Both the position numbers and the translations under genes were made by a program. The notes beneath the pieces were generated by a model that did no database searches, was not told the DNA's origin, and saw only the letters and a program-made list of their open reading frames with translations. Shown here piece after piece: positions 1,778 through 61,652 of a DNA stretch of 64,000 bases (within the stretch, counting starts at the first letter, position 1; the number at the start of each line of letters is the position of its first letter). Source of the DNA: Terrabacter aerolatus (GTDB lineage: Bacteria; Actinomycetota; Actinomycetes; Actinomycetales; Dermatophilaceae); the NCBI RefSeq assembly GCF_007991735.1, contig NZ_BJYX01000002.1, positions 1-64,000 of the forward strand. The letters are read 5' to 3'.

Positions 1778-1864
1778 GGTGTCCCGACGGTGTCGCGACG
1801 GTATGCCGGTAGGTGTCGTGACGCCGGTCGCCACCCGCCCCCGCGCGGTCACGACACCGCGGGA

Positions 1865-1900
1865 CCGCTCCCAGCCGCTCCCAGCCGCTCCCAGCCGCTC
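1865..1900. repeat. Tandem 10-bp repeat upstream of the LuxR-type regulator
   Basis: The unit CCGCTCCCAG is repeated perfectly 3.6 times. It lies in the intergenic stretch about 70 nt before the response regulator gene. One unit is close to one helical turn, so the copies would face the same side of the DNA. Whether it binds anything is unknown. Confidence 0.8.
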
Positions 1901-1966
1901 GAAGCCCGCCGCGCCGCGCGGTCGCCCGTCGGGCGTGCTGCCTCGGGGGTGCGCCAAGATGGGGGC

Positions 1967-2656
1967 GTGAACCCGCCGTCCCCGGATGTCATCCGCGTCC
2001 TCATCGTCGACGACCACGCCCTCTACCGCCGCGGGCTGCAGATGGTCCTGGCCGTCGAGGACGGCATCGAGATCGTCGGCGAGGCCGCGGACGGGGTCGA
2101 GGCCGTCGACCAGGCCGAGGAGATCCTGCCCGACGTCATCGTCATGGACGTCGGCATGCCCAAGCGTGGCGGCATCGACGCCTGCCGCGTCATCAAGCAG
2201 CGGGTCCCGTCCGCACGCATCATCATGCTGACGAGCTCCGACGAGGAGGCCAACCTCTTCGAGGCGGTCCGTGCCGGAGCCAACGGCTACCTCCTCAAGG
2301 ACGTGCCGCCGGAGGAGGTCGCGGCCGGCATCCGGGCCGTGTTCCACGGGCAGTCGCTGCTCTCCCCGCTCATGGCGTCCAAGCTGCTCGAGGAGTTCAA
2401 GCAGATCAGCCAGCGCGAGAGCGTGCCGGCACCGATCTCCGGGCTGGAGCTGCCGCGCCTGACCGAGCGCGAGCTCGGCATCCTGCGGCTCGTGGCGCGG
2501 GGACGGCTCAACCGCGAGATCGCGGTCGAGCTGTTCATCTCGGAGAACACCGTGCGCAACCACATCCGCAACATCCTCGACAAGCTGCAGATGCACTCGC
2601 GCATGGAGGCGGCGATGTACGCCGTGCGCCAGCGGCTCATCGACCCGGGCGAATGA
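1967..2656 (+). CDS. NarL/LuxR-family response regulator
   Basis: A two-component response regulator of 229 residues. The receiver domain (about 10-125) has the acidic pair DD15-16, phospho-acceptor Asp61 in VMDVGMPKRGG, and the conserved Lys in GYLLKDV. A LuxR/GerE helix-turn-helix follows at about 160-220, with LTERELGILRLVARG and ISENTVRNHIRNIL. The GTG at 1967 is chosen because the receiver begins right after it and a -10-like CAAGAT lies 6 nt upstream. No histidine kinase gene is adjacent, so the partner is unknown (orphan-type locus). The stop overlaps the next start by 4 nt. Confidence 0.9.
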   Translation: MNPPSPDVIRVLIVDDHALYRRGLQMVLAVEDGIEIVGEAADGVEAVDQAEEILPDVIVMDVGMPKRGGIDACRVIKQRVPSARIIMLTSSDEEANLFEAVRAGANGYLLKDVPPEEVAAGIRAVFHGQSLLSPLMASKLLEEFKQISQRESVPAPISGLELPRLTERELGILRLVARGRLNREIAVELFISENTVRNHIRNILDKLQMHSRMEAAMYAVRQRLIDPGE

Positions 2657-3885
2657 GCGCCGCCCCCCGCGTGCTGACCCGCGCCCAGGCCAGGCGGGTC
2701 GCCATCGCCGCCCAGGGCTTCCTCGACCCGAGGCCCGAGCCGTTCGAGGCCACGATGCGCCACGTCCAACGCGTCGTGGACCGCGTCGGGGTCATCCAGA
2801 TCGACAGCGTCAACGTGCTGGCCCGCAGCCAGTACCTCCCGTTCTTCTCCCGGCTCGGCCCCTACGACACGGCCCTGCTCGACCGGGCGCGGGACCGTGC
2901 ACCCCGTCGGCTGGTGGAGTACTGGGCTCACGAGGCGAGCCTCGTGCCGCCGGCGACGTGGCCCCTGCTCGACTTCCGCATGCGCGCCGCCGCCGAGAAG
3001 GCCTGGGGCGGCATGCGACGCATCCTCCAGGAGCGACCCGACTACGTCGACCTCGTGCGGGCCGAGGTCGAGCGGAGGGGCCCGATGACGGCCAGGGAGG
3101 TCGAGGTCGCCCTGGCCCACGACCAGCCGCGCCGCACCGACCACTGGGGCTGGAACTGGTCCGACGTCAAGCAGGCGCTCGAGTACCTCTTCTGGGCCGG
3201 GCAGATCAGCTCGGCCGGGCGCACGACCCAGTTCGAGCGGAGGTATGCCGCCCTCACCGCCACCGCGCCGCCGGCTCTGCGAGCCGCCTGGACCGGGCGC
3301 GCCGGGCCCGAGGCCGACCCGGACCGTCACCTCGAGCTCGTCCGCATCGCGGCGCGGGCCCACGGCGTCGGCACCGAGCTCTGCCTGGCCGACTACTTCA
3401 GGATCAGGCGCGAGGACGTGCGACCGGCGATCGCCCGACTCGTCGCCGACGGCGAGCTCATCCCCGTGACGGTGCCGGGCTGGAAGCCGGCCTGGCTGCA
3501 CGCCGAGGCCCGCCTGCCGCGTCGGGTCCACGCCGAGGCGCTCCTCAGCCCCTTCGACTCCCTCGTCTGGCAGCGGGAGCGGATCCACGCCCTCTGGGAC
3601 TTCCACTACCGGATCGAGATCTACACCCCTGTCGAGAAACGGGTCCACGGCTACTACGTGCTGCCCTTCCTCCACGGTGACGCCCTCGTGGCCCGGTGCG
3701 ACCTCAAGGCCGACCGGTCCGCCGGCGTGCTCCGCTGCCATCGCGTCACGTGGGAGCCCGGCGCGCCACCCGAGGCGCGCGCCGCCCTGCTCGCCAACCT
3801 CGAGTCCATGGCGAGCTGGCTCGGGCTCGGTCGTGTCGACCTGCCCATCGACGCGGCGCCACCGGGGCGCGCGGTCGGCGGCTGA
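2653..3885 (+). CDS. YcaQ/AlkX-like winged-helix DNA glycosylase
   Basis: Belongs to the HTH_42 family (E. coli YcaQ, AlkX), monofunctional DNA glycosylases that remove bulky alkylated bases and unhook interstrand crosslinks. The 410-residue protein shows the catalytic Gln-x-Asp of the YcaQ branch at Q49-I50-D51 in VIQIDSVNV. The family-typical EYWAHEASLVP and PFDSLVWQRER segments are also present. Typical length is about 400. It overlaps the response regulator gene by 4 nt (ATGA), so the two are probably co-transcribed. The family is clear. The exact substrate is inferred from characterised homologues. Confidence 0.85.
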   Translation: MSAAPRVLTRAQARRVAIAAQGFLDPRPEPFEATMRHVQRVVDRVGVIQIDSVNVLARSQYLPFFSRLGPYDTALLDRARDRAPRRLVEYWAHEASLVPPATWPLLDFRMRAAAEKAWGGMRRILQERPDYVDLVRAEVERRGPMTAREVEVALAHDQPRRTDHWGWNWSDVKQALEYLFWAGQISSAGRTTQFERRYAALTATAPPALRAAWTGRAGPEADPDRHLELVRIAARAHGVGTELCLADYFRIRREDVRPAIARLVADGELIPVTVPGWKPAWLHAEARLPRRVHAEALLSPFDSLVWQRERIHALWDFHYRIEIYTPVEKRVHGYYVLPFLHGDALVARCDLKADRSAGVLRCHRVTWEPGAPPEARAALLANLESMASWLGLGRVDLPIDAAPPGRAVGG

Positions 3886-3975
3886 GCGCGTCCCCGGGCA
3901 CACGGCATACGCCCTCGGTGGGGTGACGGAACCGGGCCGAGCGCCGACGCGTTGGTCGTTGTGTCCGGAAGGCGG

Positions 3976-4007
3976 CTAGCCTAGGCGGGTCCCGTGACCC
4001 ATCACGG
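3976..4007 (+). promoter_or_regulatory. secA leader: -10-like element and perfect inverted repeat
   Basis: TAGCCT (3976-3981) resembles an actinobacterial -10. It is followed by a perfect 7-bp inverted repeat, CCCGTGA-CCCA-TCACGGG (3990-4007), which would lie at or just after the transcription start. The repeat could be an operator or an RNA hairpin. Either role is inference. Confidence 0.4.
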
Positions 4008-4065
4008 GCGATGGAGCCCGCCCACCGGGCGCGTCCACACGTTCAGTCGGGAGTGAGATCACCAG

Positions 4066-6888
<2,823 letters not shown>

Positions 6889-11972: not shown

Positions 11973-13343
11973 TCAGGGCGCGAAGAGGATCGTCAGGCCG
12001 CCGAGCGTGTAGAGGATCATGACGACCATGAGGGGCACCTGACCGACCACCGCGGCGCGGCGGTCGAGGACCGTGATGGCGCGCTCGTGGGCGGCGAGGA
12101 CGCCGAGCAGGTGGCCGACGACGATGCTCACCGCCTGGATCGTCGCGACGAGGGTGGGCTGGATCAGGGCGTCGTTCGGGACGAGGCCGGCGGTGCCGAG
12201 CAGGTCGGCACCGGTGCCGAGGGGGTCGGTGAGCAGCCGCCACGCGTACTGCCCCTGGTAGACCCACAGCGACCAGTAGTGCGCGACGACGTAGCCACCC
12301 GCGATCGGGATGAGCGAGGGCGCGATGTCGCTGACGAAGGTGAAGGAGCGGGCGAACGGCTCGCCCGAGAGCCGTACCGACACCACCGAGGCCAGCCAGA
12401 TCGTCACGGCCACGAGTCCGAAGAAGGTCAGCAGGGTCGCCGTCTTGAGCAGGGACGACGAGACCGGTGACGTCTGCACGAACGTCGACCACGACAGGTT
12501 GGCCGAGAAGCCGTCGTATGCCGTCCCGCCGAGCATCACGGCGACCGTGGGCACGAGCCCGCGCTGGCCGCGCAGGCCGTTGACGCCGTGCAGCGGGGTG
12601 CGCAGCACCCAGCGTCCGTCGTGCCGCCGGCCGAGGGGCGAGAGCAGGCCGAGCAGCCGGGACCACGCCTCGAAGGGGTCGGCGTGGTCGAACCACGTGC
12701 GGCCGAAGACGGCTGAGCCGAGCAGGGACACCGCGAAGAAGCCGCCGACGAGGAGCTGGAGGAAGCCGAGCGAGGTGTTGTTCTCGGCGACGAGCTCGAC
12801 CCACGTGAACGTTCCGAGGCCGAGCGCGGCGGGCCAGAGTCCCCAGCGGTAGGGCAGGGCGGCGAGGTCGGGCGAGACGCGGGCGAGGCGGAGCAGTCCG
12901 GCGTGCAGCGCGCGCACCGGGTTGATGACCCGCCAGACGGGCCCGAGCAGCATCGAGGAGAACGCCAAACCGACCCATAGCCACACGTAGACGACGTGGG
13001 GCACGGGGTTGCGGGCCGAGTCCGGTCCGAGGACGAGCGCGACGAGGGTCCACACCGTGAGCACGGCCGCGAGGGCGCGCGCCACGGCGCGGAGCGAACG
13101 CGAGTCGAGCAGCGCCGCCACGGGCCGTGGCAGCAGCACCCCGTCGGTGTCCCGCAGCCGCGGCTCGCGCCACAGGGTGCCGATGGCGACGAACGAGATC
13201 ACGAGTGCGGCGACGGCCGCGATGACGAGGGCGGTGAACGGCAGCGGGAGGTCGCCGCGGCTGCCGACCCCGTGAGCCGGAACCAGTCCCGGCGCAAGGC
13301 CCGGGATCAGGCCGGGCGCCAGCTGGGGAGCGGTGAGCGCCAC
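11973..13343 (-). CDS. Polytopic membrane protein (possibly fenitrothion hydrolase-like)
   Basis: A 456-residue protein with about nine to ten predicted transmembrane helices, for example FTALVIAAVAALVISFVAIG and TLLTFFGLVAVTIWLASVV. It carries a His-containing membrane motif, GGYVVAHYWSLWVYQGQ. Similar actinobacterial proteins are often named fenitrothion hydrolase after a Burkholderia membrane protein, but the natural function is unknown. I propose the GTG at 13343, 2 nt after the stop of the upstream lipoprotein gene. The pairing with a cupredoxin-like lipoprotein suggests a metal- or redox-linked membrane role (inference). Confidence 0.6.
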   Translation of the reverse strand: MALTAPQLAPGLIPGLAPGLVPAHGVGSRGDLPLPFTALVIAAVAALVISFVAIGTLWREPRLRDTDGVLLPRPVAALLDSRSLRAVARALAAVLTVWTLVALVLGPDSARNPVPHVVYVWLWVGLAFSSMLLGPVWRVINPVRALHAGLLRLARVSPDLAALPYRWGLWPAALGLGTFTWVELVAENNTSLGFLQLLVGGFFAVSLLGSAVFGRTWFDHADPFEAWSRLLGLLSPLGRRHDGRWVLRTPLHGVNGLRGQRGLVPTVAVMLGGTAYDGFSANLSWSTFVQTSPVSSSLLKTATLLTFFGLVAVTIWLASVVSVRLSGEPFARSFTFVSDIAPSLIPIAGGYVVAHYWSLWVYQGQYAWRLLTDPLGTGADLLGTAGLVPNDALIQPTLVATIQAVSIVVGHLLGVLAAHERAITVLDRRAAVVGQVPLMVVMILYTLGGLTILFAP

Positions 13344-13345: not shown

Positions 13346-13732
13346 TCAGCGGACGGCGACCGTGAGCAGGGTCAGGGCCGGCTCGTGCGTCTCGACCTCG
13401 TAGGAGCCGGGCTCCTTGCCCGTGAGCCGGAGCGTCGTCGGCACGCCGGACTTGAGGGCCTCCTCGACGTCGAAGCCGTGCGCGTGCAGCTCGTCGTCGT
13501 GGTCGCTCGTCACGACGAGCTCCAGGGTCGAGCCGAGCGGGAGGTCGACCTGCGCCGGGGCCGGCGTCACGGTCGTCCCGGTGATCGTCACGGCGAGCCG
13601 CTTGACGCTGCCGGTGGAGACCACGCCGCCGGCGCCACTGGACCCCGGGTCGGGGCTCGAGGAGGAGCAGCCCCCCGTCACCACGAGGGCGAGGACGCAC
13701 ACGGCATACGGAAGGGCTCGAAACGCACGCAT
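13346..13732 (-). CDS. Cupredoxin-like lipoprotein
   Basis: A 128-residue secreted lipoprotein. It has a signal peptide with lipobox VTGGC (Cys near residue 22), a Ser/Gly linker, then one beta-sandwich domain of the EfeO/cupredoxin type (about 45-128). That domain includes VDLPLGSTLELVVTSDHDDE and HAHGFDVE. The His residues could bind metal, but the full Cys-Met-His copper set of classical cupredoxins is not seen. ATG 13732 lies 7 nt after a TAGGAT -10 on the minus strand, so the mRNA may be leaderless. It sits 2 nt from the downstream membrane protein gene. Confidence 0.7.
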   Translation of the reverse strand: MRAFRALPYAVCVLALVVTGGCSSSSPDPGSSGAGGVVSTGSVKRLAVTITGTTVTPAPAQVDLPLGSTLELVVTSDHDDELHAHGFDVEEALKSGVPTTLRLTGKEPGSYEVETHEPALTLLTVAVR

Positions 13733-15194: not shown

Positions 15195-15634
15195 TGCCGG
15201 TCGTGCGCGTCTACGTGCCGCTGGGCCGGACGGGTCTCGAGGAGCTCGCCTCGACGGGCGCCCTCGCGGCCGGGCCCGGCACCCCGCGGACGGCGTATGC
15301 CGTGACGTCGGGTCTCGAGCAGGCCGCGCCGGGACTCGACGTGGAGGACCTCGAGTACGCCGCCTTCAGCGATGCCGTCGAGGCCGCGGCCGGGCTCCGG
15401 TCGACGCGTTCGGACCGGCGGGTCGTCGCGGCGGCGGACGCAGACGCCTCGTGGGTGTCCCCGCGCGAGGGCGCTCCCGTGTCGAAGGTCGTGCTCACGG
15501 CGGCCGTGCCGCTCTCGCGCGTCGCGTCGTTCCACGTCGACGACGAGGTGACGGGGAGCGTCGACGAGGAGCCCGACGAGCTGCTCTGGTACGACGTCAC
15601 CGAGCTCGACGACGTGCGCTCGTTCTTCGGCTGA
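15194..15634 (+). CDS. DUF6912-like conserved protein
   Basis: A 146-residue protein starting MPVVRVYVPLGRTGLEELA, followed by TAYAVTSGLEQAAPG and LEYAAFSDA. This pattern is seen in small conserved actinobacterial proteins of unknown function (DUF6912 type). The C-terminal part has ELLWYDVTELDDVRSFFG. No catalytic motif is evident. Its ATG overlaps the stop of the WS/DGAT gene by one base (TGATG), so the two are translationally coupled. It precedes a Nudix hydrolase by 7 nt. No function can be assigned. Confidence 0.65.
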   Translation: MPVVRVYVPLGRTGLEELASTGALAAGPGTPRTAYAVTSGLEQAAPGLDVEDLEYAAFSDAVEAAAGLRSTRSDRRVVAAADADASWVSPREGAPVSKVVLTAAVPLSRVASFHVDDEVTGSVDEEPDELLWYDVTELDDVRSFFG

Positions 15635-15641: not shown

Positions 15642-16154
15642 ATGGCCGACGACGAGGTGGTCGCCCTCTACGGCGAGGCCGGAGAGGTGGTCGGGTCGGC
15701 GCCGCGCTCCGTCATGCGGGCGCGCAACCTGCGGCACGCCGCGTCGTCGGTCGTCGTGCGCGACCGGCTGGGGCGGGTCTACCTGCACCGTCGGACGACG
15801 ACGAAGGACGTCTACCCTGGCCTGCTCGACTTCGCGGCCGGCGGTGTGGTCCTGGCGGGGGAGGACCCCGGCGTGGGCGCGGTGCGTGAGCTCGAGGAGG
15901 AGCTCGGGGTCGCCGGAGTCTCGCTCGAGCCCCTCGGGGTGGCCGACTATGCCGACGCCCACACGCGGTACCGCGCCTTCCGCTTCGTCGTGACGTGGGA
16001 CGGCCCGATCCGGTGGCAGCCGGAGGAGGTGTCCTGGGGGGAGTGGGTCACGGTCGAGGAGCTCGTGCGCCGGCTCGACGACGAGCCCGACAGCATCGTG
16101 CCCGACAGCGTCGCCGTGTGGGCCGGGGCCGTGCGGGCGTGGCTGGGGACGTGA
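15642..16154 (+). CDS. Nudix hydrolase (YfcD-like)
   Basis: A 170-residue Nudix protein. The Nudix box spans about residues 66-88, with GGVVLAGEDPGVGAVRELEE then ELG, so all catalytic glutamates are present. The N-terminal part (DEVVALYGEAGEVVGSAPRS) and the LHRRTTTKDVYPGLLDFAAG segment match the YfcD/IPP-isomerase-like branch. Its members hydrolyse nucleotide-type pyrophosphates of uncertain identity. It is the last gene of the WS/DGAT-DUF6912-Nudix cluster. Substrate unknown. Confidence 0.88.
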   Translation: MADDEVVALYGEAGEVVGSAPRSVMRARNLRHAASSVVVRDRLGRVYLHRRTTTKDVYPGLLDFAAGGVVLAGEDPGVGAVRELEEELGVAGVSLEPLGVADYADAHTRYRAFRFVVTWDGPIRWQPEEVSWGEWVTVEELVRRLDDEPDSIVPDSVAVWAGAVRAWLGT

Positions 16155-17021: not shown

Positions 17022-17034
17022 CCACCCGGCATAC

Positions 17035-19322: not shown

Positions 19323-19340
19323 TCGCCCGACCAGGTATGC

Positions 19341-19376
19341 CGCAGGGCCCGTCTCCGAGTGGAGGCGGGCCCTGCG
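19341..19376. terminator. Strong bidirectional terminator after pruA
   Basis: A 16-bp stem with one G-T pair (19341-19356 with 19361-19376) and a 4-nt loop lies between convergent pruA and the DUF2505 gene. Confidence 0.8.
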
Positions 19377-19455: not shown

Positions 19456-19953
19456 TCAGGCGTGCTCGGCGAGCCAGGCGTTGCCGGTGCGCTGCTCGCT
19501 GCGGATCGCGTCGATGACGGCCGGGGCCGCGGCCTTCTCGACCTTCCCGCCGAAGAGCGGGATCGAGGCCTTGAGGTCGCCGTCGATGGTGATCTGCGTG
19601 CCGCCCCCGGTGGGCGCGAGCCGGATCGTCGACCGCATCGCGACCGGGGCCCCGGCCACCTCGACGGTGAGCGTGCCGGTGCGGGTGCCGTCACCGGCGG
19701 CGCCACCCCACTCGTACGTCTCCGTCACCGAGAGGGTCGGGCCGACGATCGACTTGGCGAAGTCGGGCAGGTCGTCGGCAGGCAGGTCGCGCTTGGTGAC
19801 GACGCGGGCGCCGTCGCCGGCGGGGCTGACCGCGGCCTCGTGCCGCTGCGCGCCGGCCTCGACGCACTTGCGCTCCTGGAACGCCCGGTCGGTGACCATG
19901 GCGTAGACGGCCTCTGGCGGCGCGGCATACGTGATCGTCTCGGAGATCTTCAT
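19456..19953 (-). CDS. DUF2505 (SRPBCC-like) protein
   Basis: A 165-residue protein starting MKISETITYAAPPEAVYAMV, the strand/helix start of a START/SRPBCC-like lipid-binding fold. It continues with TETYEWGG and GGGTQITIDGDLKASIPLFG, typical of DUF2505 proteins of actinobacteria. The longer in-frame reading upstream runs through a simple repeat and is not used. ATG 19953 lies 7 nt after TAGCGT on the minus strand. Function unknown; ligand binding is inferred from the fold. Confidence 0.8.
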   Translation of the reverse strand: MKISETITYAAPPEAVYAMVTDRAFQERKCVEAGAQRHEAAVSPAGDGARVVTKRDLPADDLPDFAKSIVGPTLSVTETYEWGGAAGDGTRTGTLTVEVAGAPVAMRSTIRLAPTGGGTQITIDGDLKASIPLFGGKVEKAAAPAVIDAIRSEQRTGNAWLAEHA

Positions 19954-30115: not shown

Positions 30116-30209
30116 TCGCGTGGCGGGGTGGGGCTCGTGGAGGCGGGCCGGGGAGGTGCCCCCGATCTCGGGCCGGGGACGACGAGCAGGTATGCCGTCA
30201 CGGCCGAAC

Positions 30210-36284: not shown

Positions 36285-36417
36285 CGTGATCCCTCCCTCG
36301 TCCCGCGCGCGGGCCGCAGGCCCCCGCCGTGATGCGCTCAACTCAACCACACGGCATACCCCGTCCACACGCAGGTGGCGAAGGTGGCCCGGACCGCCGT
36401 GGACTCGAGGTTCTCCT

Positions 36418-43074: not shown

Positions 43075-44391
43075 GTGGACAGCGCCGTGAGTGACCCCCA
43101 GCCGTTGCGCGTCGCCCTGCTCGGGGCGGGTGTCGTCGGCGGAGCCGTGGCGCGCCTGCTCGTCGAGCACGCCGACGACATGGCCGCGCGGGTCGGTGCG
43201 CCGCTCCAGATCGTCGGCATCGCGGTCCGTCGCGCCGGGCGCGACCGTGCCGCCCTCGGCGTCGACCCGGCGCTCTTCACGACGGACGCGGACGAGCTCG
43301 TCACCCGCGCCGACGTCGTCGTCGAGGTCATCGGCGGCATCGAGCCCGCCCGGTCGCTCATCCTGCGTGCGATGGAGCACGGCGCGTCGGTCGTCACCGC
43401 CAACAAGGCGCTGCTCGCCGAGGACGGGCCGACGCTCTACGCAGCCGCGGCCCGGCACGGCGTCGACCTCTACTACGAGGCCGCGGTCGCCGGCGCGATC
43501 CCGCTGCTGCGGCCGCTGCGCGAGTCGCTCGCCGGCGACGAGGTGCGCCGCGTGCTCGGCATCGTCAACGGCACCACCAACTACGTCCTCGACAAGATGG
43601 ACACGACCGGGGCGGGCTTCGACGACGCGGTCGAGCAGGCCCAGGCGCTCGGCTATGCCGAGGCCGACCCGACCGCCGACGTCGAGGGCTTCGACGCCGC
43701 CGCCAAGGCGGCCATCCTCGCCTCGCTCGCCTTCCACACCCGGGTCTCGGGCACCGACGTCTACCGCGAGGGCATCACCGAGGTGTCGGCGGCCGACGTC
43801 GCGGCGGCACGGGAGATGGACTCCATCGTCAAGCTCCTCGCGATCTGTGAGCGCAGCGACAAGGGGGTCAGCGTCCGCGTGCACCCGGCGATGATCCCGC
43901 GGTCGCACCCGCTGGCCGGGGTCCGCGAGGCCTTCAACGCGGTCTTCGTCGAGGCCGACGCCGCCGGGGAGCTGATGTTCTACGGCAAGGGGGCCGGTGG
44001 CGACCCCACGGCCTCCGCGGTCCTCGGCGACCTCGTCGCCGTGGCCCGTCACCGCGTGGGCGGAGGCCTCGGCCCGGGGGAGTCCACCTACGCCGACCTG
44101 CCCGTGCTGACCATGGGCGACGCCCAGACGAGGTACCACATCAGCCTCGACGTCGAGGACCGCTCGGGCGTCCTGGCGCAGGTCGCCGCGGCGTTCGCCG
44201 ACCACGACGTGTCGATCGAGACGGTGCGCCAGCAGCTCGTCCCCGCCGGCGACGGCCGGGCCGCCCGGGCCAACCTCATCATCGTCACGCACTCCGCGAG
44301 CGATGCGGCCCTGTCCTCCACGGTCGAGCGCCTGCGCACGCTCGACGTCGTCCGTGGCGTCAACTCCGTCATGCGCGTGGAAGGTTCGTGA
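43075..44391 (+). CDS. hom: Homoserine dehydrogenase
   Basis: Reduces aspartate-semialdehyde to homoserine with NAD(P)H, the branch to threonine and methionine. The 438-residue protein has the Rossmann motif [15 protein letters not shown], the catalytic region [24 protein letters not shown], and a C-terminal ACT domain (about 350-430, [20 protein letters not shown]) for threonine feedback. GTG 43075 sits next to a hairpin. GTG 43087 is an in-frame alternative. Its stop overlaps the thrC start (TGATG). Confidence 0.96.
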
Positions 44392-45489: not shown

Positions 45490-46467
45490 GTGAACCGGGT
45501 GCCTGCGGGCCGGTCCGTCCACGTGCGCGTGCCCGCGAGCAGCGCCAACCTCGGCCCGGGCTTCGACTCGATCGGCCTGGCGCTCGGGCTGTGGGACGAC
45601 TACGTCGTCACGACCTCCGACACCCCGGGCCTCGTCATCGAGGTCACGGGGGAGGGGGCCGGTGAGGTCCCGACCGACGAGCGTCACCTCGTCCACGCGA
45701 CGCTGGAGCACACCTGGGGCGTGCTCGGCGTCGAGCCGCCGACCGGCCTGCGTCTCGAGGCCGTCAACGGTGTCCCGCACAGTCGTGGCCTCGGCTCGTC
45801 CGCCACTGCCATCGTCGCGGGCGTCGTTGCGGCACAGGCACTCTCGTGTGATGTGCTCCAGGGCGCGTATGCCGGTTGGCCCGCTCCCGGTGACGTCGTG
45901 CCGGTCGACCTCGGGCTGGCGACACATCTGGCGAGCCTGCTCGAGGGGCATCCGGACAACGCCTCGGCGAGCGTGCTGGGAGGCCTCACCGTCAGCTGGA
46001 TGCCCGACGGCACCGGGCTCGACGAGGGCGAGCGCACCGTGACCGCGCGCCTCGACCTGCACCCCGACGTCGAGGTGGTCGTCTTCGTCCCCGAGACCCA
46101 GCTCGCGACGCGCACGGCCCGTGCCGTGCTGCCGGCCACCGTGCCGCTGGCCTCGGCCGCGGCGGGCGCCGGGCGGGCGGCACTGCTCGTCCATGCCCTC
46201 ACGGCCGACCCCGCGCACCTGCACGCCGCGACCCGCGACTGGCTGCACCAGGAGGCGCGCCGGCCCTCGTATCCCGACACCATGGAGCTCGTCGACCTGC
46301 TGCGCTCGCAGGGCCGGGCGGCCGTCGTCTCGGGAGCCGGTCCGAGCGTGCTCGTGCTGACGACGCGGGACGCCGCCGACGACGTCCGGGCGGGCCACCT
46401 GGCCTCGCGCTGGGAGCGCCTCGTGCCGACGGTCCCGACGCATGGTGCGACGGTGCGGGCTCGCTGA
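45490..46467 (+). CDS. thrB: Homoserine kinase
   Basis: GHMP kinase that phosphorylates homoserine with ATP. The 325-residue product has PASSANLGPGFDSIGLALGL at the N-terminus and the ATP loop PHSRGLGSSATAIVAGV. Its C-terminal motif VVSGAGPSVLVLT is intact. GTG 45490 lies 4 nt after thrC. It ends the lysA-hom-thrC-thrB run. The next gene, rho, has its own promoter. Confidence 0.97.
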   Translation: MNRVPAGRSVHVRVPASSANLGPGFDSIGLALGLWDDYVVTTSDTPGLVIEVTGEGAGEVPTDERHLVHATLEHTWGVLGVEPPTGLRLEAVNGVPHSRGLGSSATAIVAGVVAAQALSCDVLQGAYAGWPAPGDVVPVDLGLATHLASLLEGHPDNASASVLGGLTVSWMPDGTGLDEGERTVTARLDLHPDVEVVVFVPETQLATRTARAVLPATVPLASAAAGAGRAALLVHALTADPAHLHAATRDWLHQEARRPSYPDTMELVDLLRSQGRAAVVSGAGPSVLVLTTRDAADDVRAGHLASRWERLVPTVPTHGATVRAR

Positions 46468-48951: not shown

Positions 48952-49353
48952 ATGTCTGCGCCTGCCGGCGAACCCGATGCCAGCCCCGTCCGCGTCCTCG
49001 TGGCCGATGACGACGCCGACATCCGCGACCTCGTCGAGTTCAAGCTGACCCAGGCTGGGTATGCCGTCGAGGCCGTCCCGGACGGCATCAGCGCGTGGGA
49101 GGCCTTCGAGGCCAACCCTCCCCAGCTGGCCGTCCTCGACGTGATGATGCCCGGCCTGTCGGGGATCGACGTCCTGCGCAAGATCCGTGAGAGCGAGTTC
49201 CCCTCCGTGCCGGTGCTGCTGCTCAGCGCCAAGTCGCGCGACTCCGACGTCGACACCGGCTTCGCGGTGGGCGCGGACGACTACGTCATCAAGCCGTTCA
49301 GCCCGCGGGAGCTGCTCCACCGCGTCAACGGCATGCTCGCCAGGGCCCGATGA
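48952..49353 (+). CDS. Single-domain (CheY-like) response regulator
   Basis: A 133-residue receiver domain with no output domain. It has the acidic pair DDD19-21, phospho-acceptor Asp63 in VLDVMMPGLSG, the conserved Ser in LLLSAKSRD, and Lys in DYVIKPFSPREL (PhoB/OmpR-type receiver). ATG 48952 has GGAG 6 nt upstream. It starts a four-gene operon that ends with a histidine kinase, its likely partner. It probably acts by protein-protein contact, for example on the HEAT protein or the glycosyltransferase (inference). Confidence 0.9.
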   Translation: MSAPAGEPDASPVRVLVADDDADIRDLVEFKLTQAGYAVEAVPDGISAWEAFEANPPQLAVLDVMMPGLSGIDVLRKIRESEFPSVPVLLLSAKSRDSDVDTGFAVGADDYVIKPFSPRELLHRVNGMLARAR

Positions 49354-50425: not shown

Positions 50426-51870
50426 GCTGGGACGGCGTCACGGAGGGACTGCGGTCCCTCGTCGTGTGGAGCATGGACGTCACCGCCGTGCCAGTCATCA
50501 TCTACTTCCTCCTCATCAACACCTCCCTCCTGCTCCTCATCGCGCTGGCCTACCTCGAGTTCCGGGCGCAGCAGCGTCGGCGCGCGACGGCGGTGTCCTG
50601 GCAGGGCGCTGGCCTTGCCCCGGGGGTGTCACTGCTCGTCCCGGCCTACAACGAGGAGGCCGGGATCGTCATGGCGGTCAAGTCCTTCCTCACGCTGCGC
50701 TACCCGCGGCACGAGGTCGTCGTCGTCGACGACGGCAGCAGTGACGAGACCTTCGCGCGCCTCGAGGCCGCCTTCGACCTGGTCCAGGTGCCGCGCGAGC
50801 TGCCGCACGAGATCCCGATCCGGGCCAAGGTCCTCGGCATCTGGGTGCCGCGCGACGGCCGCACCCGCCTCGTCGTGGTCCGCAAGGAGAACTCTGGCAA
50901 GACCGAGGCGCTCAACGTCGGGGTCAACGCGGCGAACGAGCCGCTCGTGGCCATGCTCGACGGTGATTCCATCCTCGAGCCCGACGGCCTGCTGCACGTG
51001 ACGCGCCCCTTCGCCGACGACCCGACGCGCATGGTGGCGACGGGCGGGGCCATCCGCCCCGTCAACGGCAGCCGGGTCGTCTCGGGCCGTATCGTGCGGG
51101 TCGAGATGCCGCAGACGTGGATGCCGCGCATCCAGCTCGTCGAGTACCTCCGCGCCTTCCTCCTCGGCCGCACCGGCTGGTCGCGTCTGGGTGGTCTCAT
51201 CCTCATCAGCGGCGCCTTCGGGCTCTTCCGACGCGACGTTGTCGTCGAGGTGGGTGGGCTCGAGCCCAACAGCATCGGCGAGGACTTCGAGCTCGTCATG
51301 CGCATCCACAAGAAGCTGCTCGACGAGGGGCGCGACTACCGCATCGAGTTCGTCCCGGAGCCCGTCTCGTGGACCGAGGTCCCGATCACCGCCAAGGTCC
51401 TGCGCAACCAGCGCCGTCGTTGGCACCGCGGCCTGTGGGAGACCCTGTGGGCCTACCGCTCCATGCTCTTCCGCCCGAAGTACGGCCGCATCGGCTCGCT
51501 CGCCCTGCCCTACTACTGGCTCTTCGAGCTCATCGCCCCGCTGCTAGAGCTCTTCGGCATCCTCATCGTGCCGCTCGCGCTGCTCCTCGGCGTCGTCAAC
51601 GTGCCCTTCGCGATCCTCTTCCTCGTCCTGGCCTACGGGTATGCCGTGCTCGTGACGCTGTCCGCGATGGTCGTCGACGAGTGGGCCTTCCACAAGCACG
51701 ACCGGTGGCGTGCCATCTGGCAGACCATCGCCGCCTCCGTCCTCGAGAACATCGGCTACCGCCAGGCCACCGTGTGGTGGCGCCTCGAGGGGTGGTGGTC
51801 CAGCCTGCGCGGGAAGAAGCACGTCTGGGGTGTCATGACCCGCACGGGCTTCGACGAGGAGCAGGCGTGA
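50422..51870 (+). CDS. Family 2 processive-type membrane glycosyltransferase
   Basis: A 482-residue GT2 enzyme resembling cellulose, hyaluronan or poly-GlcNAc synthases. There is a membrane helix at about 20-42, then the catalytic domain. The domain has LLVPAYNEEAGIVMAVKSFL, the UDP-sugar motif VVDDGSSDE, the metal motif LDGDSIL, the acceptor acidic motif IGEDFELVMR, and QRRRWHRG (Q-x-x-R-W). Two or three membrane helices follow at about 365-425. These are the D, DxD, ED and QxxRW motifs of a processive synthase. No PilZ domain is present. The polymer is unknown. Confidence 0.9.
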   Translation: MSWDGVTEGLRSLVVWSMDVTAVPVIIYFLLINTSLLLLIALAYLEFRAQQRRRATAVSWQGAGLAPGVSLLVPAYNEEAGIVMAVKSFLTLRYPRHEVVVVDDGSSDETFARLEAAFDLVQVPRELPHEIPIRAKVLGIWVPRDGRTRLVVVRKENSGKTEALNVGVNAANEPLVAMLDGDSILEPDGLLHVTRPFADDPTRMVATGGAIRPVNGSRVVSGRIVRVEMPQTWMPRIQLVEYLRAFLLGRTGWSRLGGLILISGAFGLFRRDVVVEVGGLEPNSIGEDFELVMRIHKKLLDEGRDYRIEFVPEPVSWTEVPITAKVLRNQRRRWHRGLWETLWAYRSMLFRPKYGRIGSLALPYYWLFELIAPLLELFGILIVPLALLLGVVNVPFAILFLVLAYGYAVLVTLSAMVVDEWAFHKHDRWRAIWQTIAASVLENIGYRQATVWWRLEGWWSSLRGKKHVWGVMTRTGFDEEQA

Positions 51871-53955: not shown

Positions 53956-54936
53956 TCAGAAGCAGCCGCCGCGGGGCTGCTCCCGCAGCCGAGGCGTCAC
54001 GGTCCAGCCGGTCACCGGGTCGAGCAGGGCGTGGGGTGTCGGGCTCGTCCGGTCGGACCGGGGTCCGGTGCTGGTCACGCGGGGCGAGCGCGGCCGGCCG
54101 GTCCGGGCGTCGAGCGACCAGCGCTCGGTGACCCAGACGGCCTCGCCGGTGACGGCTGCGTCGGACGTCCGGGGGTACCAGACCTCGACCGTGACGTCGC
54201 GACCGGCGTCGCGCAGGCGCACCCCGGCGGGCGCGTCCGGTCGCGTCGGCAGGACACGCCAGGTCACCGACCGGTTCGCGAGGTCGACCCCGAGCACGGA
54301 CCCGTCCGACCCCGGGACGACGACGTGGGTCGAGTCCGACCCCACGAGCGGCTCCCGTGGCCACGCGCCCACGGGCAGGGGGACCTCGGTGGAGACCCAC
54401 GAGCCGGAGGCCGGCGACCAGGCGACGAGGGCCCGACCGCGCACGCCGACGACTCCGGTCGAGGTCGCGACGAGCGACGCGCGGTAGGCCCGGTCGGCGT
54501 CCAAGTCCACCGGCGACTCCTGCCACGACCAGGCGCCCGCGCCACCGTCGAGCCGCTCGGCGGCGAGCCCCGCCTCGCCCACCGCCGGCGCCCCCACGGC
54601 ATAGCCGTCCACGACGCCGAGCACGTCGGCGAGGCCCGTCGGGGTCGAGACGGACCCCATCGCGACGTCGACGACGTGGGTGGCGTGGCACCCGACGACG
54701 ACGGCGTGCCCGTTGCTCAGGCGCACCGGCTCGGCGAGCAGGTCGGCCACGGTGGCGGTCCAGCGCACGGTGCCCGAGGGGTCGGCGGCCGTCACGTGTC
54801 CGGCCTCGGCAGGAGACACGTCGGGACAGCCGTCGAAGGAGCAGCCGGCGCCCGAGCACGCTGCAGCGGCGAGCAGCACGGCGATCGCACCGCAGGCCGC
54901 GGCGTGGCGTCGACCCTCCCGGTCCAGGACTCCCAT
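53956..54936 (-). CDS. Putative lipoprotein with PQQ-like beta-propeller
   Basis: A 326-residue exported protein. The signal peptide AIAVLLAAAACSG has a possible lipobox Cys. Three more Cys follow in CSFDGCP. The rest is made of beta strands with periodic Trp and DLANRSVTWRVLPTR-like repeats, consistent with a PQQ/quinoprotein-like propeller of about 300 residues. No quinone-enzyme motif is seen, so a binding or scaffold role is likelier. ATG 54936 has AAGGGG 8 nt upstream. Function unknown. Confidence 0.7.
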   Translation of the reverse strand: MGVLDREGRRHAAACGAIAVLLAAAACSGAGCSFDGCPDVSPAEAGHVTAADPSGTVRWTATVADLLAEPVRLSNGHAVVVGCHATHVVDVAMGSVSTPTGLADVLGVVDGYAVGAPAVGEAGLAAERLDGGAGAWSWQESPVDLDADRAYRASLVATSTGVVGVRGRALVAWSPASGSWVSTEVPLPVGAWPREPLVGSDSTHVVVPGSDGSVLGVDLANRSVTWRVLPTRPDAPAGVRLRDAGRDVTVEVWYPRTSDAAVTGEAVWVTERWSLDARTGRPRSPRVTSTGPRSDRTSPTPHALLDPVTGWTVTPRLREQPRGGCF

Positions 54937-55519: not shown

Positions 55520-56608
55520 GTGCTCGATTCCGTCCAGTCGATCCTCGACGAGTACGCCGAGCTCGAGCTGCAGCTCGCCGACCCGGCCGTGCACGGTGAC
55601 CAGGACCTCGTGCGCACGCTGAACAAGCGGTATGCCGCCCTGGCGCCCACCGTGGCCGCTGCTCGTGAGTGGACCGCCGCAGGTGACGACCTCGCCGCAG
55701 CGCAGGAGCTCGCGGCCGACGACGCGTCGTTCGCGGCGGAGGTGCCCTCGCTCGAGGTGCGCCTGGCCGCCGCCGAGGAGCACCTGCGCCGCATGCTCGT
55801 GCCGCGCGATCCCGACGACGACCGCGACGTCATCCTCGAGGTCAAGGCCGGCGAGGGCGGTGACGAGTCGGCACTCTTCGCCGGTGACCTGCTGCGGATG
55901 TACCTGCGCTACGCCGAGCAGCGCGGCTGGCGCACGGCGATCGAGGATGCCACCGAGAGCGACCTGGGCGGCTACAAGGACGTCCGGGTCTCGGTGCGCG
56001 CCAAGGGCGCTCCGGGCCTGGGCGAGGGCCCGTGGGCGCGCCTCAAGTACGAGGGCGGGGTCCACCGGGTCCAGCGGGTGCCCGTGACGGAGAGCCAGGG
56101 GCGCATCCACACCTCGGCCGCCGGCGTGCTCGTCATGCCCGAGGCCGAGGAGGTCGAGGTCACCATCGACCCCAACGACCTGCGCATCGACGTCTACCGC
56201 AGCAGCGGTCCCGGCGGCCAGAGCGTCAACACGACCGACTCGGCCGTGCGCATCACCCACCTGCCCTCGGGCCTGGTCGTGTCGTGCCAGAACGAGAAGT
56301 CGCAGCTGCAGAACAAGGAGGCCGCGATGCGCGTGCTCCGGGCCCGCCTGCACCAGATGGCCAAGGACGAGGCGGACGCGGAGGCCAGCGCCGCGCGCCG
56401 CTCCCAGGTCCGCACCGTCGACCGCTCCGAACGCATCCGCACGTACAACTTCCCCGAGAACCGCATCTCCGACCACCGCACGGGCTACAAGTCCTACAAC
56501 CTCGACTCCGTGCTCGACGGCGACCTCGACCCCGTCGTGCAGTCGGCCCTCGACGCCGACGAGGCGGCCAAGCTCGCGGCTCTCGCCGACGACGGGGCCG
56601 GCGCGTGA
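55520..56608 (+). CDS. prfA: Peptide chain release factor 1
   Basis: Releases proteins at UAA and UAG. The 362-residue protein has the peptidyl-tRNA hydrolysis motif GGQ (Gln234 in [16 protein letters not shown]) and the start-codon-side helices of RF1. Its PxT-type recognition region is present. GTG 55520 gives the family length. It overlaps prmC by 4 nt (GTGA), the gene for the enzyme that methylates Gln of GGQ. Confidence 0.97.
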
Positions 56609-57522
56609 CCGACGACCTGACCGACGGCGTGACCGACCTGCGCGACGGCGTGCGCGCGGCCACGGTCCGCCTGCGCGAGGCGGGCGTCGCCTCGGCCGAC
56701 GTCGATGCCGTCGAGCTCGCCTCCCACGTCCTCGGCGTGGAGGCCCCCGAGGTGCGTCGCCTCATGGTGCTCGGCGGACGGACGCTCCCGGGGTCGTATG
56801 CCGCCCTCGTCGACGAGCGCGCCCGACGCGTCCCGCTCCAGCACCTCACCGGTCGGGCCCACTTCCGCCGGCTGACCCTGTCGGTGGGCCCGGGGGTCTT
56901 CGTCCCGCGTCCCGAGACCGAGGTGCTCGTGGAGCTGGCGCTCGCCGAGGTGGACCGCGTCGCCGCGGCGCGCGCCGACGACCGGGTGCACGTCGAGCAC
57001 CCGGTGCGGGTCGTCGACCTGTGCTCGGGGTCCGGAGCGATCGCGCTGTCGGTCAAGGTCGAGCGGCCGGGCGCGGAGGTGCGCGGCCTCGAGATCTCGC
57101 CCGACGCCCACGCCTGGGCGGTCGCCAACCGTGACCGCCTCGGCGTCGAGGTCGACCTCGTGCAGGGTGACGCCACGCGACGGTGCTTCGAGGACTGGTC
57201 CGGCCTCGTCGACGTCGTGACCGTCAACCCGCCCTACATCCCCGTCGGCGCCGTCCCGGTCGACCCGGAGGTGCGCGACCACGACCCCGAGCTCGCGCTC
57301 TACGGCGGCAGTGACGACGGCTTGGCGATACCGCTCGCGGTCGCGCGCGTTGCCGCGACCCTGCTCCGCCCGGGGGGACTCGTCCTCGTGGAGCACGCGG
57401 ACTCGCAGGGGGAGAGCCTGCCCCGGCGGCTCACCGCGACGGGGGAGTGGGTCGAGGTGGGCGACCGTACGGACCTCAGCGGCCGGCCGCGGGTGACGGT
57501 CGCCCGGCGAGCGCGGCGCTGA
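56605..57522 (+). CDS. prmC: Release factor glutamine methyltransferase
   Basis: Methylates the GGQ glutamine of RF1 and RF2 with SAM. The 305-residue protein has SAM motif [15 protein letters not shown] and active-site NPPYIP (Asn208), the N5-glutamine MTase signature. The N-terminal helical domain (about 10-95) binds release factor. Its last 47 nt overlap the convergent TetR gene. It is co-transcribed with prfA, its substrate's gene. Confidence 0.96.
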
Positions 57523-58144: not shown

Positions 58145-58154
58145 CCTTGCACAT

Positions 58155-59365: not shown

Positions 59366-59563
59366 CTCGTTCCTCCTCGTATCCGGTGCGACTCTGCTGC
59401 GATGTGGGGCCGATTCCTACCGGCCGTGCCTGTGAGCGCGCTGGACGACACGGCGAGGGCCATGTCGATGACCACGGCGAGGGCAGTGGCGAGGGGACCA
59501 GCTCCACGACGGCGGTACGCGCCGTAGGTCCCGGCTGGCAGCGGCACCGCCTTGGTGGCCCAG

Positions 59564-59569
59564 TAGGCT
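59564..59569 (+). promoter_or_regulatory. -10 of the tsaC-like gene
   Basis: TAGGCT lies 7 nt before GTG 59577, another leaderless-type layout. Confidence 0.55.
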
Positions 59570-59576
59570 CGGCCCC

Positions 59577-60326
59577 GTGAGCGAGCGCTACGACTGCACC
59601 GACCCCGAGGGCCGCGCCGAGGGCATCCCGGCCGCGGCCTCCGCCGTCCGCCGCGGCGAGATCGTCGTCCTGCCGACCGACACGGTCTACGGCATCGGCT
59701 GCGACGCCTTCGACGCCACTGCCGTCGCGTCCGTCCTGGCGGCCAAGGGTCGTGGGCGTGACATGCCGCCCCCGGTCCTCATCCCGACGGCGCGCACGGC
59801 GCAGGGCCTCGCCACCGCGGTGCCCGACTACGCGCAGCGGCTCATGGAGAAGTTCTGGCCCGGCCCGCTGACCCTCGTGCTCAAGGCGCAGACCTCCCTG
59901 CACTGGGACCTCGGCGAGACCAACGGCACGGTCGCGCTGCGCGTGCCCGACCACGAGATCACCCTCGAGCTGCTCGGGGACATCGGCCCGATGGCCGTGA
60001 CGAGCGCCAACACCACCGGTGACCCGGCGGCGCGCACCGTCGACGAGGCGCAGGGCATGCTGGGCGAGTCGGTCGGGGTCTATCTCGACGCAGGCCCCGC
60101 CGGAGAGGGCCTGCCCTCGACGATCGTCGACTGCACGGGCGAGGCGCCCGTGACCCTGCGGGTCGGCGCCCTCTCGCAGCACGACATCGACGCGGCCCTC
60201 GAGCCGGAACCCGAGCTCGAGGCGCCGGCACCCGACCCGGTCGCAGACGACCCCGACACCGTGGGGGAGTGGCGCGACGTCTCCACCCCCGAGCAGCCGT
60301 CCGACGGTCCCAGCCCCACCCCCTAG
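59577..60326 (+). CDS. L-threonylcarbamoyladenylate synthase (Sua5/YciO/YrdC family)
   Basis: Makes threonylcarbamoyl-AMP for t6A37 of ANN-reading tRNAs. The 249-residue protein has the YrdC fold with GEIVVLPTDTVYGIGCDAFD, KFWPGPLTLVLKAQ and VTSANTTGDPAA, and an acidic Pro-rich tail of about 45 residues beyond the domain. The normal domain length is about 205. GTG 59577 is set by the promoter. It lies between prmC and glyA, as in many actinobacteria. Confidence 0.93.
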   Translation: MSERYDCTDPEGRAEGIPAAASAVRRGEIVVLPTDTVYGIGCDAFDATAVASVLAAKGRGRDMPPPVLIPTARTAQGLATAVPDYAQRLMEKFWPGPLTLVLKAQTSLHWDLGETNGTVALRVPDHEITLELLGDIGPMAVTSANTTGDPAARTVDEAQGMLGESVGVYLDAGPAGEGLPSTIVDCTGEAPVTLRVGALSQHDIDAALEPEPELEAPAPDPVADDPDTVGEWRDVSTPEQPSDGPSPTP

Positions 60327-60374
60327 AGTTGGCTCGCGCTCGCGCCCCACTCCCGACCCACCCGGAGAACCCAC

Positions 60375-61652
60375 ATGGCTGACGACACGTTCTACGGCTC
60401 CGACTTCGGCGCCCTGAAGTCCTTCGACCCCGACATCGCCGGCGTGCTCCTGTCCGAGCTCGACCGCATCCGCGGCGGACTGCAGCTGATCGCGAGCGAG
60501 AACATCAGCTCGCCCGCCGTGCTGACCGCCCTGGGCTCGACGCTGTCGAACAAGTACGCCGAGGGCTACCCCGGGCGTCGCTACTACGGCGGGTGCTCCG
60601 AGGTCGACAAGGCCGAGACCATCGCCATCGAGCGTGCCAAGGCCCTCTTCGGCGCCGACCACGCCAACGTCCAGGCGCACTCCGGTGCGAGCGCCAACCA
60701 GGCCGTCTACGGGGCGTTCATGTCTCCCGGAGACACGATCCTCGCCATGGCGCTGCCCATGGGTGGTCACCTGACCCACGGCACCAAGGTCTCCTTCTCC
60801 GGCAAGTGGTTCAACGCCGTGCACTACGGCGTCGACGCCACCTCCGAGGACATCGACTACGACCAGGTGGAGGCGCTCGCCAAGGAGCACCGCCCCAAGG
60901 TCATCTGCGCCGGCGGTTCCGCGATCCCGCGGCTCATCGACTTCGAGCGCTTCCGCGCCATCGCCGACGAGGTCGGCGCGATCCTCTGGGTCGACGCCGC
61001 CCACTTCATCGGTCTCGTCGCCGGCAAGGCCATCCCCTCGCCCGTGCCGTATGCCGACGTCGTCACCTTCACGACGCACAAGGTGCTCCGCGGCCCGCGC
61101 TCCGGCGCGCTCGTCTGCAAGGCCGAGCACGCGGCCGCCATGGACAAGGCGATCTTCCCGATGATGCAGGGCGGTCCCCAGATGCACACCATCGCGGCCA
61201 AGGCGGTCAACTTCAAGGAGGCCGCGACCCCCGAGTACGCCCAGTACGCGAAGGACGTCATCGCCAACAGCCAGCAGCTCGCCTCGAGCCTGCTCGAGCT
61301 CGGCATCCGCCCGACGACGGGCGGCACCGACACGCACCTCTCGCTCCTGGACCTGCAGGGTGTCGGGGTCACGGGCAAGGAGGCCGAGGAGCGCGCCGAC
61401 GCTGCCGGCATCGTGCTCAACAAGAACGCGATCCCCTTCGACCCGCAGAAGCCCAACATCGCCTCCGGCATCCGCGTGGGCACGCCGTCCGTGACGACGC
61501 AGGGCATGGGCCTGGAGGAGATGAAGCAGATCGCCACGCTCATCCACCAGGCCGTCACGCAGGGTGACGCCGACCCCGACCACGCCGTCAGCAAGCAGGT
61601 CCGCGCGGAGGTCACCGACCTCGTGACGCGCTTCCCGGCATACCCTCGCTGA
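60375..61652 (+). CDS. glyA: Serine hydroxymethyltransferase
   Basis: Interconverts serine and glycine and supplies one-carbon units on tetrahydrofolate. The 425-residue protein has the PLP lysine (Lys236) in TTHKVLRGPRSG, IASENISSPAVL near the N-terminus, and GGTDTHLSLLDLQ. It starts 48 nt after the tsaC-like gene. The leader is too short for a glycine riboswitch. Confidence 0.98.
   Translation: MADDTFYGSDFGALKSFDPDIAGVLLSELDRIRGGLQLIASENISSPAVLTALGSTLSNKYAEGYPGRRYYGGCSEVDKAETIAIERAKALFGADHANVQAHSGASANQAVYGAFMSPGDTILAMALPMGGHLTHGTKVSFSGKWFNAVHYGVDATSEDIDYDQVEALAKEHRPKVICAGGSAIPRLIDFERFRAIADEVGAILWVDAAHFIGLVAGKAIPSPVPYADVVTFTTHKVLRGPRSGALVCKAEHAAAMDKAIFPMMQGGPQMHTIAAKAVNFKEAATPEYAQYAKDVIANSQQLASSLLELGIRPTTGGTDTHLSLLDLQGVGVTGKEAEERADAAGIVLNKNAIPFDPQKPNIASGIRVGTPSVTTQGMGLEEMKQIATLIHQAVTQGDADPDHAVSKQVRAEVTDLVTRFPAYPR

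What the first reader, a model, noticed from the sequence alone, without database searches (positions are those of the whole stretch)
1802..61642. A dispersed GTATGCCG word under apparent DNA-level selection
TATGCCG/CGGCATA occurs 29 times, in 26 cases as GTATGCCG, about once per 2.2 kb. It is present in both orientations, in and between genes. Within genes it sits in different frames and recruits codons otherwise avoided here: TAT-GCC (Tyr-Ala, although Tyr is normally TAC), GCA-TAC (Ala-Tyr), ATA in the ABC ATPase at 35904, and CGT-ATG-CCG in gdh at 22524. My rough base-composition expectation is about six. This points to a protein-recognised chromosomal word, such as a DNA uptake signal (comF is present), a modification site, or a chromosome-organisation site. 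None of these is shown.
Basis: partly seen in the sequence, partly recalled or inferred. Interest (0 to 1): 0.8.

Follow-up and report, generated by a model that had tools for sequence, protein, structure and literature searches.

The report
Genome-wide repeated DNA word in Terrabacter
A soil bacterium and many of its relatives carry the same eight-letter DNA word about every two thousand letters, kept at the DNA level and spelled differently in different lineages; it looks like a self-recognition tag, perhaps for DNA uptake, of a sort known from two unrelated bacterial families, but its function is untested.

Summary
GTATGCCG occurs 26 times in the window (order-3 Markov expectation 1.2) and 2163 times in the 4.42 Mb genome (word read backwards: 195). 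The genome is Terrabacter-like. The word is abundant (>=900 copies) in 22 of 36 sampled genomes of its family and in 0 of 22 other-family genomes; the 290 non-family genomes of a class-wide sample all stay below 400. Sister lineages use dialects: GTATGNCG and GGATGCCG. It is maintained as DNA: 161 coding copies against 8 after synonymous shuffling; TAT codons inside words kept in 143 of 175 comparisons, outside in 17 of 138. New: neighbouring words alternate strand, because same-strand words repel within about 1 kb and opposite-strand words do not (seen in most but not all genomes sampled), and a G/C sits at +5. Best reading: a DNA-uptake-sequence-like self word, apparently read with orientation, in a Gram-positive family. 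Rivals: a Chi-like or an organisation site. No reader protein was found; function is inferred, not shown.

The parts
1801..1808 (+). GTATGCCG, intergenic
3243..3250 (+). GTATGCCG in AlkZ-like glycosylase gene
3903..3910 (-). GTATGCCG, intergenic
12516..12523 (+). GTATGCCG, antisense in predicted gene 11976-13343(-)
13702..13709 (-). GTATGCCG at the start of predicted gene 13349-13702(-)
15295..15302 (+). GTATGCCG in predicted gene 15194-15631
15947..15954 (+). CTATGCCG variant (the only clearly enriched one-mismatch form)
17027..17034 (-). GTATGCCG, intergenic
19335..19342 (+). GTATGCCG, intergenic
19923..19930 (-). GTATGCCG in DUF2505 gene
22523..22530 (+). GTATGCCG in NAD-glutamate dehydrogenase gene
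29781..29788 (-). GTATGCCG in predicted gene 29056-29922(-)
30190..30197 (+). GTATGCCG, intergenic
34434..34441 (-). GTATGCCG in ABC-2 membrane-like gene
35903..35910 (+). GTATGCCG, antisense in ABC ATPase gene
36352..36359 (-). GTATGCCG, intergenic
39008..39015 (+). GTATGCCG, antisense in predicted gene 38981-39595(-)
39986..39993 (-). GTATGCCG in predicted gene 39603-40457(-)
41759..41766 (-). GTATGCCG, antisense in predicted gene 41572-42987; inverted pair with 41817
41817..41824 (+). GTATGCCG in predicted gene 41572-42987
43653..43660 (+). CTATGCCG variant
45867..45874 (+). GTATGCCG in GHMP kinase gene
49059..49066 (+). GTATGCCG in predicted gene 49000-49350
51639..51646 (+). GTATGCCG in predicted gene 50422-51867
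54597..54604 (-). CTATGCCG variant
55630..55637 (+). GTATGCCG in peptide release factor gene
56796..56803 (+). GTATGCCG in predicted gene 56605-57519
61049..61056 (+). GTATGCCG in SHMT gene
61636..61643 (-). GTATGCCG, antisense near the end of the SHMT gene

Best explanation
GTATGCCG (longer form, by preference: C GTATGCCG T/C/G S N N S) is the self-recognition word of this Terrabacter-like bacterium, working like a DNA uptake sequence. A surface or membrane protein of the competence machinery prefers DNA that carries the word; fragments of kin, which carry it about every 2 kb, are taken up and recombined, and this biased exchange keeps and spreads the word (molecular drive). Because same-strand copies repel over about 1 kb and opposite-strand copies ignore each other, I infer that the word is read with orientation: a copy serves DNA on one side of it, for instance as the start of single-strand import through ComEC. 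SHOWN: abundance, family restriction, dialects, DNA-level maintenance, sharp core plus the +5 contact, no replication-strand polarity in the stretches sampled, strand-specific spacing in most sampled genomes.
For: 2163 copies, 1072 and 1091 per strand. Family-specific and patchy. Dialects GTATGNCG (G012: coding 142 against 13.6 shuffled; whole-genome counts) and GGATGCCG (G034 3949, G024 3816), which follow the ComEC tree in part (7 changes of the word label against 14.4 shuffled; the GG dialect needs 2). Intergenic density about twice coding in the five GTATGCCG genomes sampled. One orientation favoured in reading frames (112 against 49 in G000), as for known uptake sequences (PMC2346458). 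Even spacing: 99 forward gaps, CV 0.63, random 0.99. Synonymous TAT kept inside words 143 of 175, outside 17 of 138. Words turn over between genera: 1 of 10 shared with I. calvum. Low-GC bins poor in words: 0.38 against 2.02 per 4 kb in G000. ComEC in 57 of 58, with ComEA beside it in all 36 family genomes, and Tad/T2SSE ATPases in 58 of 58; the actinobacterium M. luteus transforms with Flp/Tad pili and has comEA and comEC (PMC6370729, passages).
Against: No uptake was measured and I found no report of competence in this family. ComEC, ComEA and Tad ATPases are just as present in wordless relatives, so presence of the machinery does not explain the word. The halo of one-mismatch forms that known uptake sequences have (947 against 86 expected in A. 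pleuropneumoniae; PMC1939737) is missing: 1.31-fold here, 1.13-fold in wordless controls. In H. influenzae uptake does not depend on orientation, while here spacing does. Strand alternation is absent in G024 (41 of 79 pairs same-strand) and not significant in G015 (31 of 79, P=0.085), nor in the weak or unrelated words of G009 and G014. In the low-GC conjugative-element contig L019 the first 12 kb hold 1 word but the 20 kb hold 6.
Confidence: 0.5

Rival explanations
1. A Chi-like site: a helicase-nuclease that resects broken DNA ends (AdnAB-like here) stops degrading when it meets the word on the strand it follows. Each strand then needs its own regularly spaced copies, and dialects follow the enzyme's taste.
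For: Strand-specific repulsion without opposite-strand repulsion is just what a strand-reading translocase would select. Paired large PDDEXK_1 proteins, AdnAB-like by recall, occur in the genome. Chi differs among lineages: five related motifs in Proteobacteria (PMC8022716, passages).
Against: Known Chi sites are polarised to the leading strand, with consecutive sites on the same strand more than chance (PMC8022716); here strands are balanced in each stretch and alternate. PDDEXK_1 proteins are in 37 of 38 genomes, wordless ones too. That mycobacterial AdnAB has no Chi is recalled.
Confidence: 0.2
2. A binding site for a chromosome-organising or segregation protein.
For: Thousands of evenly spaced copies; DNA-level maintenance; Karlin and colleagues read even spacing of USS that way (cited in PMC1939737).
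Against: No polarity as for FtsK-type sites (that such sites are polarised is recalled). Turnover between genera, dialects, and total absence in many close relatives are odd for a housekeeping function. Same-strand-only repulsion is not expected of a passive binding site.
Confidence: 0.13
3. A restriction-modification, BREX-like or other self-marking methylation word.
For: Short, asymmetric, sharp core; patchy by genus; +5 base gives a bipartite look.
Against: Such sites are usually avoided or neutral, not enriched 20-fold (recalled); methylation does not explain even strand-specific spacing; no methylation data at hand.
Confidence: 0.08
4. Codon-pair, Tyr-Ala usage or mutation bias.
For: The commonest frame is G-TAT-GCC-G (99 of 161 coding copies).
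Against: Synonymous shuffling gives 8.1, not 161; antisense frames and intergenic DNA are enriched too; TAT is otherwise lost; relatives of like GC lack it.
Confidence: 0.02

Closest known systems
DUS of Neisseriaceae (12-mer 5'-ATGCCGTCTGAA-3' and seven other dialects)
   Same: Thousands of copies, in and between genes, no overall strand bias, one orientation favoured in frames, dialects by clade, patchy in the wider family. It even shares the letters ATGCCGT with the commonest extended form here.
   Different: Gram-positive host; the DUS core CTG is not part of this word and GCCGTCTGAA is not enriched (2 in 458 kb); no ComP-like receptor identified; same-strand repulsion; no uptake data.
USS of Pasteurellaceae (Hin-USS, Apl-USS)
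   Same: 8-10 bp core, even spacing, two spellings by clade, some inverted pairs.
   Different: USS has a large halo of one-mismatch forms and AT-rich flanks; here no halo and GC-preferring flanks.
Chi sites (RecBCD/AddAB)
   Same: Short, asymmetric, abundant, read on one strand by a translocase, differs among lineages.
   Different: Chi is polarised along the chromosome; this word alternates; RecC missing from most word-rich genomes.
HIP1 of cyanobacteria (GCGATCGC)
   Same: Abundant 8-mer kept genome-wide in many members of a lineage.
   Different: HIP1 is a palindrome tied to methylases (PMC4390886, abstract start in listing); this word is asymmetric.

Membership tests
DNA uptake sequence (DUS/USS) | hundreds to thousands of copies far above chance | tested here: met
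   2163 against control 195; 161 against 8.1
DNA uptake sequence (DUS/USS) | no general strand bias along the chromosome | tested here: met
   1072/1091; heterogeneity p=0.97 over 20 stretches; full ori-ter map not possible on contigs
DNA uptake sequence (DUS/USS) | one orientation commoner in reading frames | tested here: met
   112 sense, 49 antisense in G000; G012 32/35 and the GG genomes 24/39, 26/41 differ in direction
DNA uptake sequence (DUS/USS) | clade-wise dialects | tested here: met
DNA uptake sequence (DUS/USS) | halo of over-represented one-mismatch forms | tested here: not met
   1.31-fold against 1.13 in wordless controls; only CTATGCCG clearly enriched, 10 against 1.6
DNA uptake sequence (DUS/USS) | raises uptake or transformation by the species | not testable with these tools
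   needs a bench assay
DNA uptake sequence (DUS/USS) | recognised by a pilin-type receptor | tested here: inconclusive
   ComEC, ComEA, Tad ATPases present with and without word; no receptor singled out
Chi site | leading-strand polarity, consecutive sites on the same strand | tested here: not met
   same-strand neighbours 61 of 196 in G000, permuted mean 92.5
Chi site | read by RecBCD | tested here: not met
   RecC absent from G000 and 18 of 22 word-rich genomes; AddAB/AdnAB reading not tested
HIP1 | palindromic octamer | tested here: not met
   GTATGCCG is asymmetric
Restriction-modification site | methylated in the word | not testable with these tools
   no raw signal data

The most novel reading that the evidence does not exclude
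A DNA 'language' of self-recognition in a Gram-positive family, the first outside Neisseriaceae and Pasteurellaceae as far as my searches reach, in which each word is an oriented entry point: it commits the DNA on one side to single-strand import and recombination. The strand-alternating grammar would be the genomic footprint of that one-sidedness, and dialect switches would be recombination barriers between lineages.
Probability: 0.3. Interest if true: 0.95.

Novelty: new variant of a known kind. Interest (0 to 1): 0.85.

Why it matters
Uptake words are described in the papers I saw only for two Gram-negative families. A third, independent case in a monoderm phylum, with spellings that change between lineages, would let the drive-or-selection question about such words be tested by comparison, would point to a sequence-specific DNA receptor in Gram-positive bacteria, and would offer a practical handle for transforming soil actinobacteria. 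If it is Chi-like instead, it would be a strand-balanced Chi in a lineage lacking RecBCD, which is also new to me. Either way strand-specific repulsion is a measurable signature that other genome words can be tested for.

Tried and rejected
Codon or composition artefact: rejected by synonymous shuffling and matched codons. RecBCD as reader: rejected. Presence of ComEC, ComEA, Tad ATPases or PDDEXK_1 proteins as explanation of word presence: not discriminating. Replication-strand polarity: not seen (the one nominal GC-skew correlation, G034, rests on 5 stretches). Transcription-terminator role: few inverted pairs, 5 within 60 bp among 217 words in G000; intergenic density is highest between convergent genes (1.68/kb) but 1.0 and 0.79 elsewhere. 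Intragenic position bias: weak and inconsistent (sense copies 104 of 245 in the downstream half pooled over five genomes, p=0.02, carried by G000). Neisserial DUS itself: absent. GTACGYCG as a dialect in G031/G032/G027: excess 2-3-fold in coding, no intergenic enrichment for GTACGCCG; left open. Plain site conservation between species, without codon matching, is only a little above controls (for example 6 of 10 against 0.59).

Sampling limits: dialect discovery used about 75-200 kb per genome from 18 other genomes, not whole genomes; in the first listing the output was cut and one search repeated six genomes. Gene calls are from my own simple caller (coding fraction 0.56-0.90). Pairs are not independent.
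Full report
What was checked. The window holds TATGCCG 29 times and GTATGCCG 26 times, the most over-represented 7- and 8-mer of the window under an order-3 Markov model (1.7 and 1.2 expected). In 458,044 bases of the genome (window plus 20 stretches) it is 217 against 10.7 at order 3; orders 4 to 6 give 54, 158 and 213 because the model then contains the word. In the whole assembly (4,420,518 bases, 62 contigs) there are 1072 forward and 1091 reverse copies, one per 2.04 kb, against 195 for the word read backwards.

Who has it. Of 58 relatives, 36 belong to the family: all 9 genomes of the genus have 1423-2358 copies, 13 of 27 others have 939-4724 (some with raised controls, for example G023 1142 against 453), and the other 14 have 11-293. 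The 22 other-family genomes have at most 167. In a class-wide draw of 296 genomes, 6 of them family members, counts above 1000 occur only in 4 family members; no non-family genome reaches 400. In 15-25 kb gdh loci of named organisms the word is seen in Terrabacter (10 each in 4), Terracoccus 10, Humibacillus 13, Nostocoides jenkinsii 24, Metallococcus 26, and 22 times in 930 kb of 40 outgroup loci.

Dialects. Sampled stretches of word-poor relatives (about 75-200 kb each) show other spellings. GGATGCCG: G034 106 against 10.6, G024 84 against 10.4, G009 46 against 11.7; whole genomes 3949, 3816 and 1336, controls 289, 392, 310. GTATGNCG: G012 has GTATGACG 43 against 4.8 and GTATGGCG 38 against 4.7 beside GTATGCCG 92 against 7.9; whole-genome counts of the three non-C forms are high in G035 4011, G011 3747, G012 2147, G019 1641, lower in G026 926 and G013 909 (controls 617, 884, 765, 638, 549, 342), while G000 has 36 against a control of 148. 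Synonymous shuffling supports both: GGATGCCG 63 against 13.5 (G034) and 67 against 15.4 (G024); GTATGNCG 142 against 13.6. G009 is weaker (41 against 12.9, no intergenic enrichment). G014 has an unrelated word, GGAGNCGGT (69 against 19.2). G010, G016, G017, G018, G021 and G022 show no form clearly. Janibacter gdh loci fit GGATGCCG (8 and 9 copies; GTATGCCG 0 and 1). On a ComEC tree of all 36 family genomes the word label needs 7 changes (shuffled mean 14.4), the GG dialect 2; several inner branches are poorly supported.

DNA-level maintenance. Coding copies exceed synonymous shuffles about 20-fold in G000, G015, G025, G030 and G012, in sense and antisense frames, and intergenic DNA is about twice as dense as coding. 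Among seven sequences of Terrabacter, Terracoccus and Humibacillus (gdh region, 42 ordered pairs, not independent), TAT codons inside a word stay TAT in 143 of 175 comparisons, outside in 17 of 138; A/T-ending codons 179 of 234 against 2753 of 11647. Yet sites turn over: 5-7 of 7-11 aligned window words are present in each of six close relatives (5-GC 8-mers: 0.39-0.59), 1 of 10 in Intrasporangium calvum (0.29).

Fine anatomy. One-mismatch forms are 271 against 206.7 (1.31-fold; wordless controls 1.13); only CTATGCCG stands out, 10 against 1.6. Flanks, tested between genes (n=110, four genomes) to avoid codon effects: position +5 is G or C in 94% (background 69%, p=3e-10), +9 in 89%, -1 C in 58%, +1 T in 51% and A in 2%. 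In G000 211 of 217 copies have G/C at +5, in the window 26 of 26.

Strand grammar. Neighbouring words lie on opposite strands more than chance: same-strand neighbours are 61 of 196 in G000 (label-permuted mean 92.5, P<0.0005), 22 of 77 in G025 (P=0.0005), 21 of 68 in G030 (0.0055), 70 of 188 in G012 with all four spellings (0.001), 34 of 101 in G034 (0.006), 31 of 79 in G015 (0.085) and 41 of 79 in G024 (no effect). Of 200 random 8-mers of like abundance in G000 the mean same-strand fraction is 0.518 (sd 0.047, minimum 0.388) against 0.311 for the word; among nine chosen control words one, GTACGTCG, was also low (4 of 16, P=0.02). The cause is same-strand repulsion: pairs closer than 1 kb on one strand are 14 against 46.0 expected in G000, 10 against 29.6 in G025, 10 against 23.5 in G030, 30 against 51.2 in G034, 34 against 46.8 in G015, 130 against 175.5 in G012, 32 against 32.3 in G024, while opposite-strand pairs in G000 are 32 against 26.2 and 24 against 25.4. 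The first 99 forward gaps on contig 1 have mean 3743 and CV 0.63 (random 0.99). Strand counts per stretch are balanced, without heterogeneity (p=0.97).

Machinery. ComEC is in 57 of 58 relatives, ComEA lies beside it in the loci read, T2SSE/Tad-type ATPases in 58 of 58, in G014 only weakly, PDDEXK_1 proteins in 37 of 38. None tracks the word. RecC is in 19 of 58: 4 of 22 word-rich, 0 of 3 GGATGCCG, 7 of 11 other family genomes.

Reading. Abundance, dialects, family restriction, turnover under maintenance, balance of strands, preference for one orientation in frames and even spacing are the hallmarks listed for uptake sequences in the passages I saw (PMC1939737; PMC12616744; PMC7811141; PMC3630211) and in the main text part I read of PMC2346458. 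Two features differ: no mismatch halo and strand-specific repulsion. The second suggests one-sided action from the word. [quoted passage not shown] A Chi-like role explains the repulsion equally well but not the lack of polarity. I therefore give uptake 0.5, Chi-like 0.2, organisation 0.13, modification 0.08.

Print. Searches of an open-licence library showed no paper on such a word in Actinobacteria among the rows listed (643 papers hold the string, 30 listed; 109 papers, 25 listed). Subscription journals are mostly not held, so novelty is provisional.

Noticed in passing
G014 stretches L046-L050: A different dispersed word, GGAGNCGGT (77 against 9.5 by order-3 Markov, 69 coding against 19.2 shuffled), in a relative with only one weak T2SSE match; no strand alternation.
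   Followed up: partly
G055 (another family of the order): GGATGCCG 1548 times against 184 for the reversed word, out of line with other non-family genomes; may be a separate case or codon usage.
   Followed up: no
G031, G032, G027; Allobranchiibius locus L177: Excess of GTACGCCG/GTACGTCG (L177: 20 and 7 in 25 kb); may be a further dialect or Tyr-Ala codon usage.
   Followed up: partly
L012:6696-6729, L038, L027, L028: Some words form perfect inverted pairs with extended stems (up to 17 bp) like the hairpin pairs of USS.
   Followed up: partly
L019 (own genome, contig 30, 1-16 kb): Low-GC conjugative-element genes (TraG/TraD-like, DnaG-like primase); 1 word in the first 12 kb, 6 in 20 kb.
   Followed up: partly
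family genomes: RecC is patchy: present in 11 of 36 family genomes and in 1 of 9 of the window's genus.
   Followed up: no
G021 stretches: Palindromic GAGGNCCTC over-represented (96 against 33.8).
   Followed up: no
word and flank: The commonest extended form GTATGCCGT shares ATGCCGT with the neisserial DUS 12-mer (letters); probably coincidence, as the rest of the DUS is absent.
   Followed up: yes
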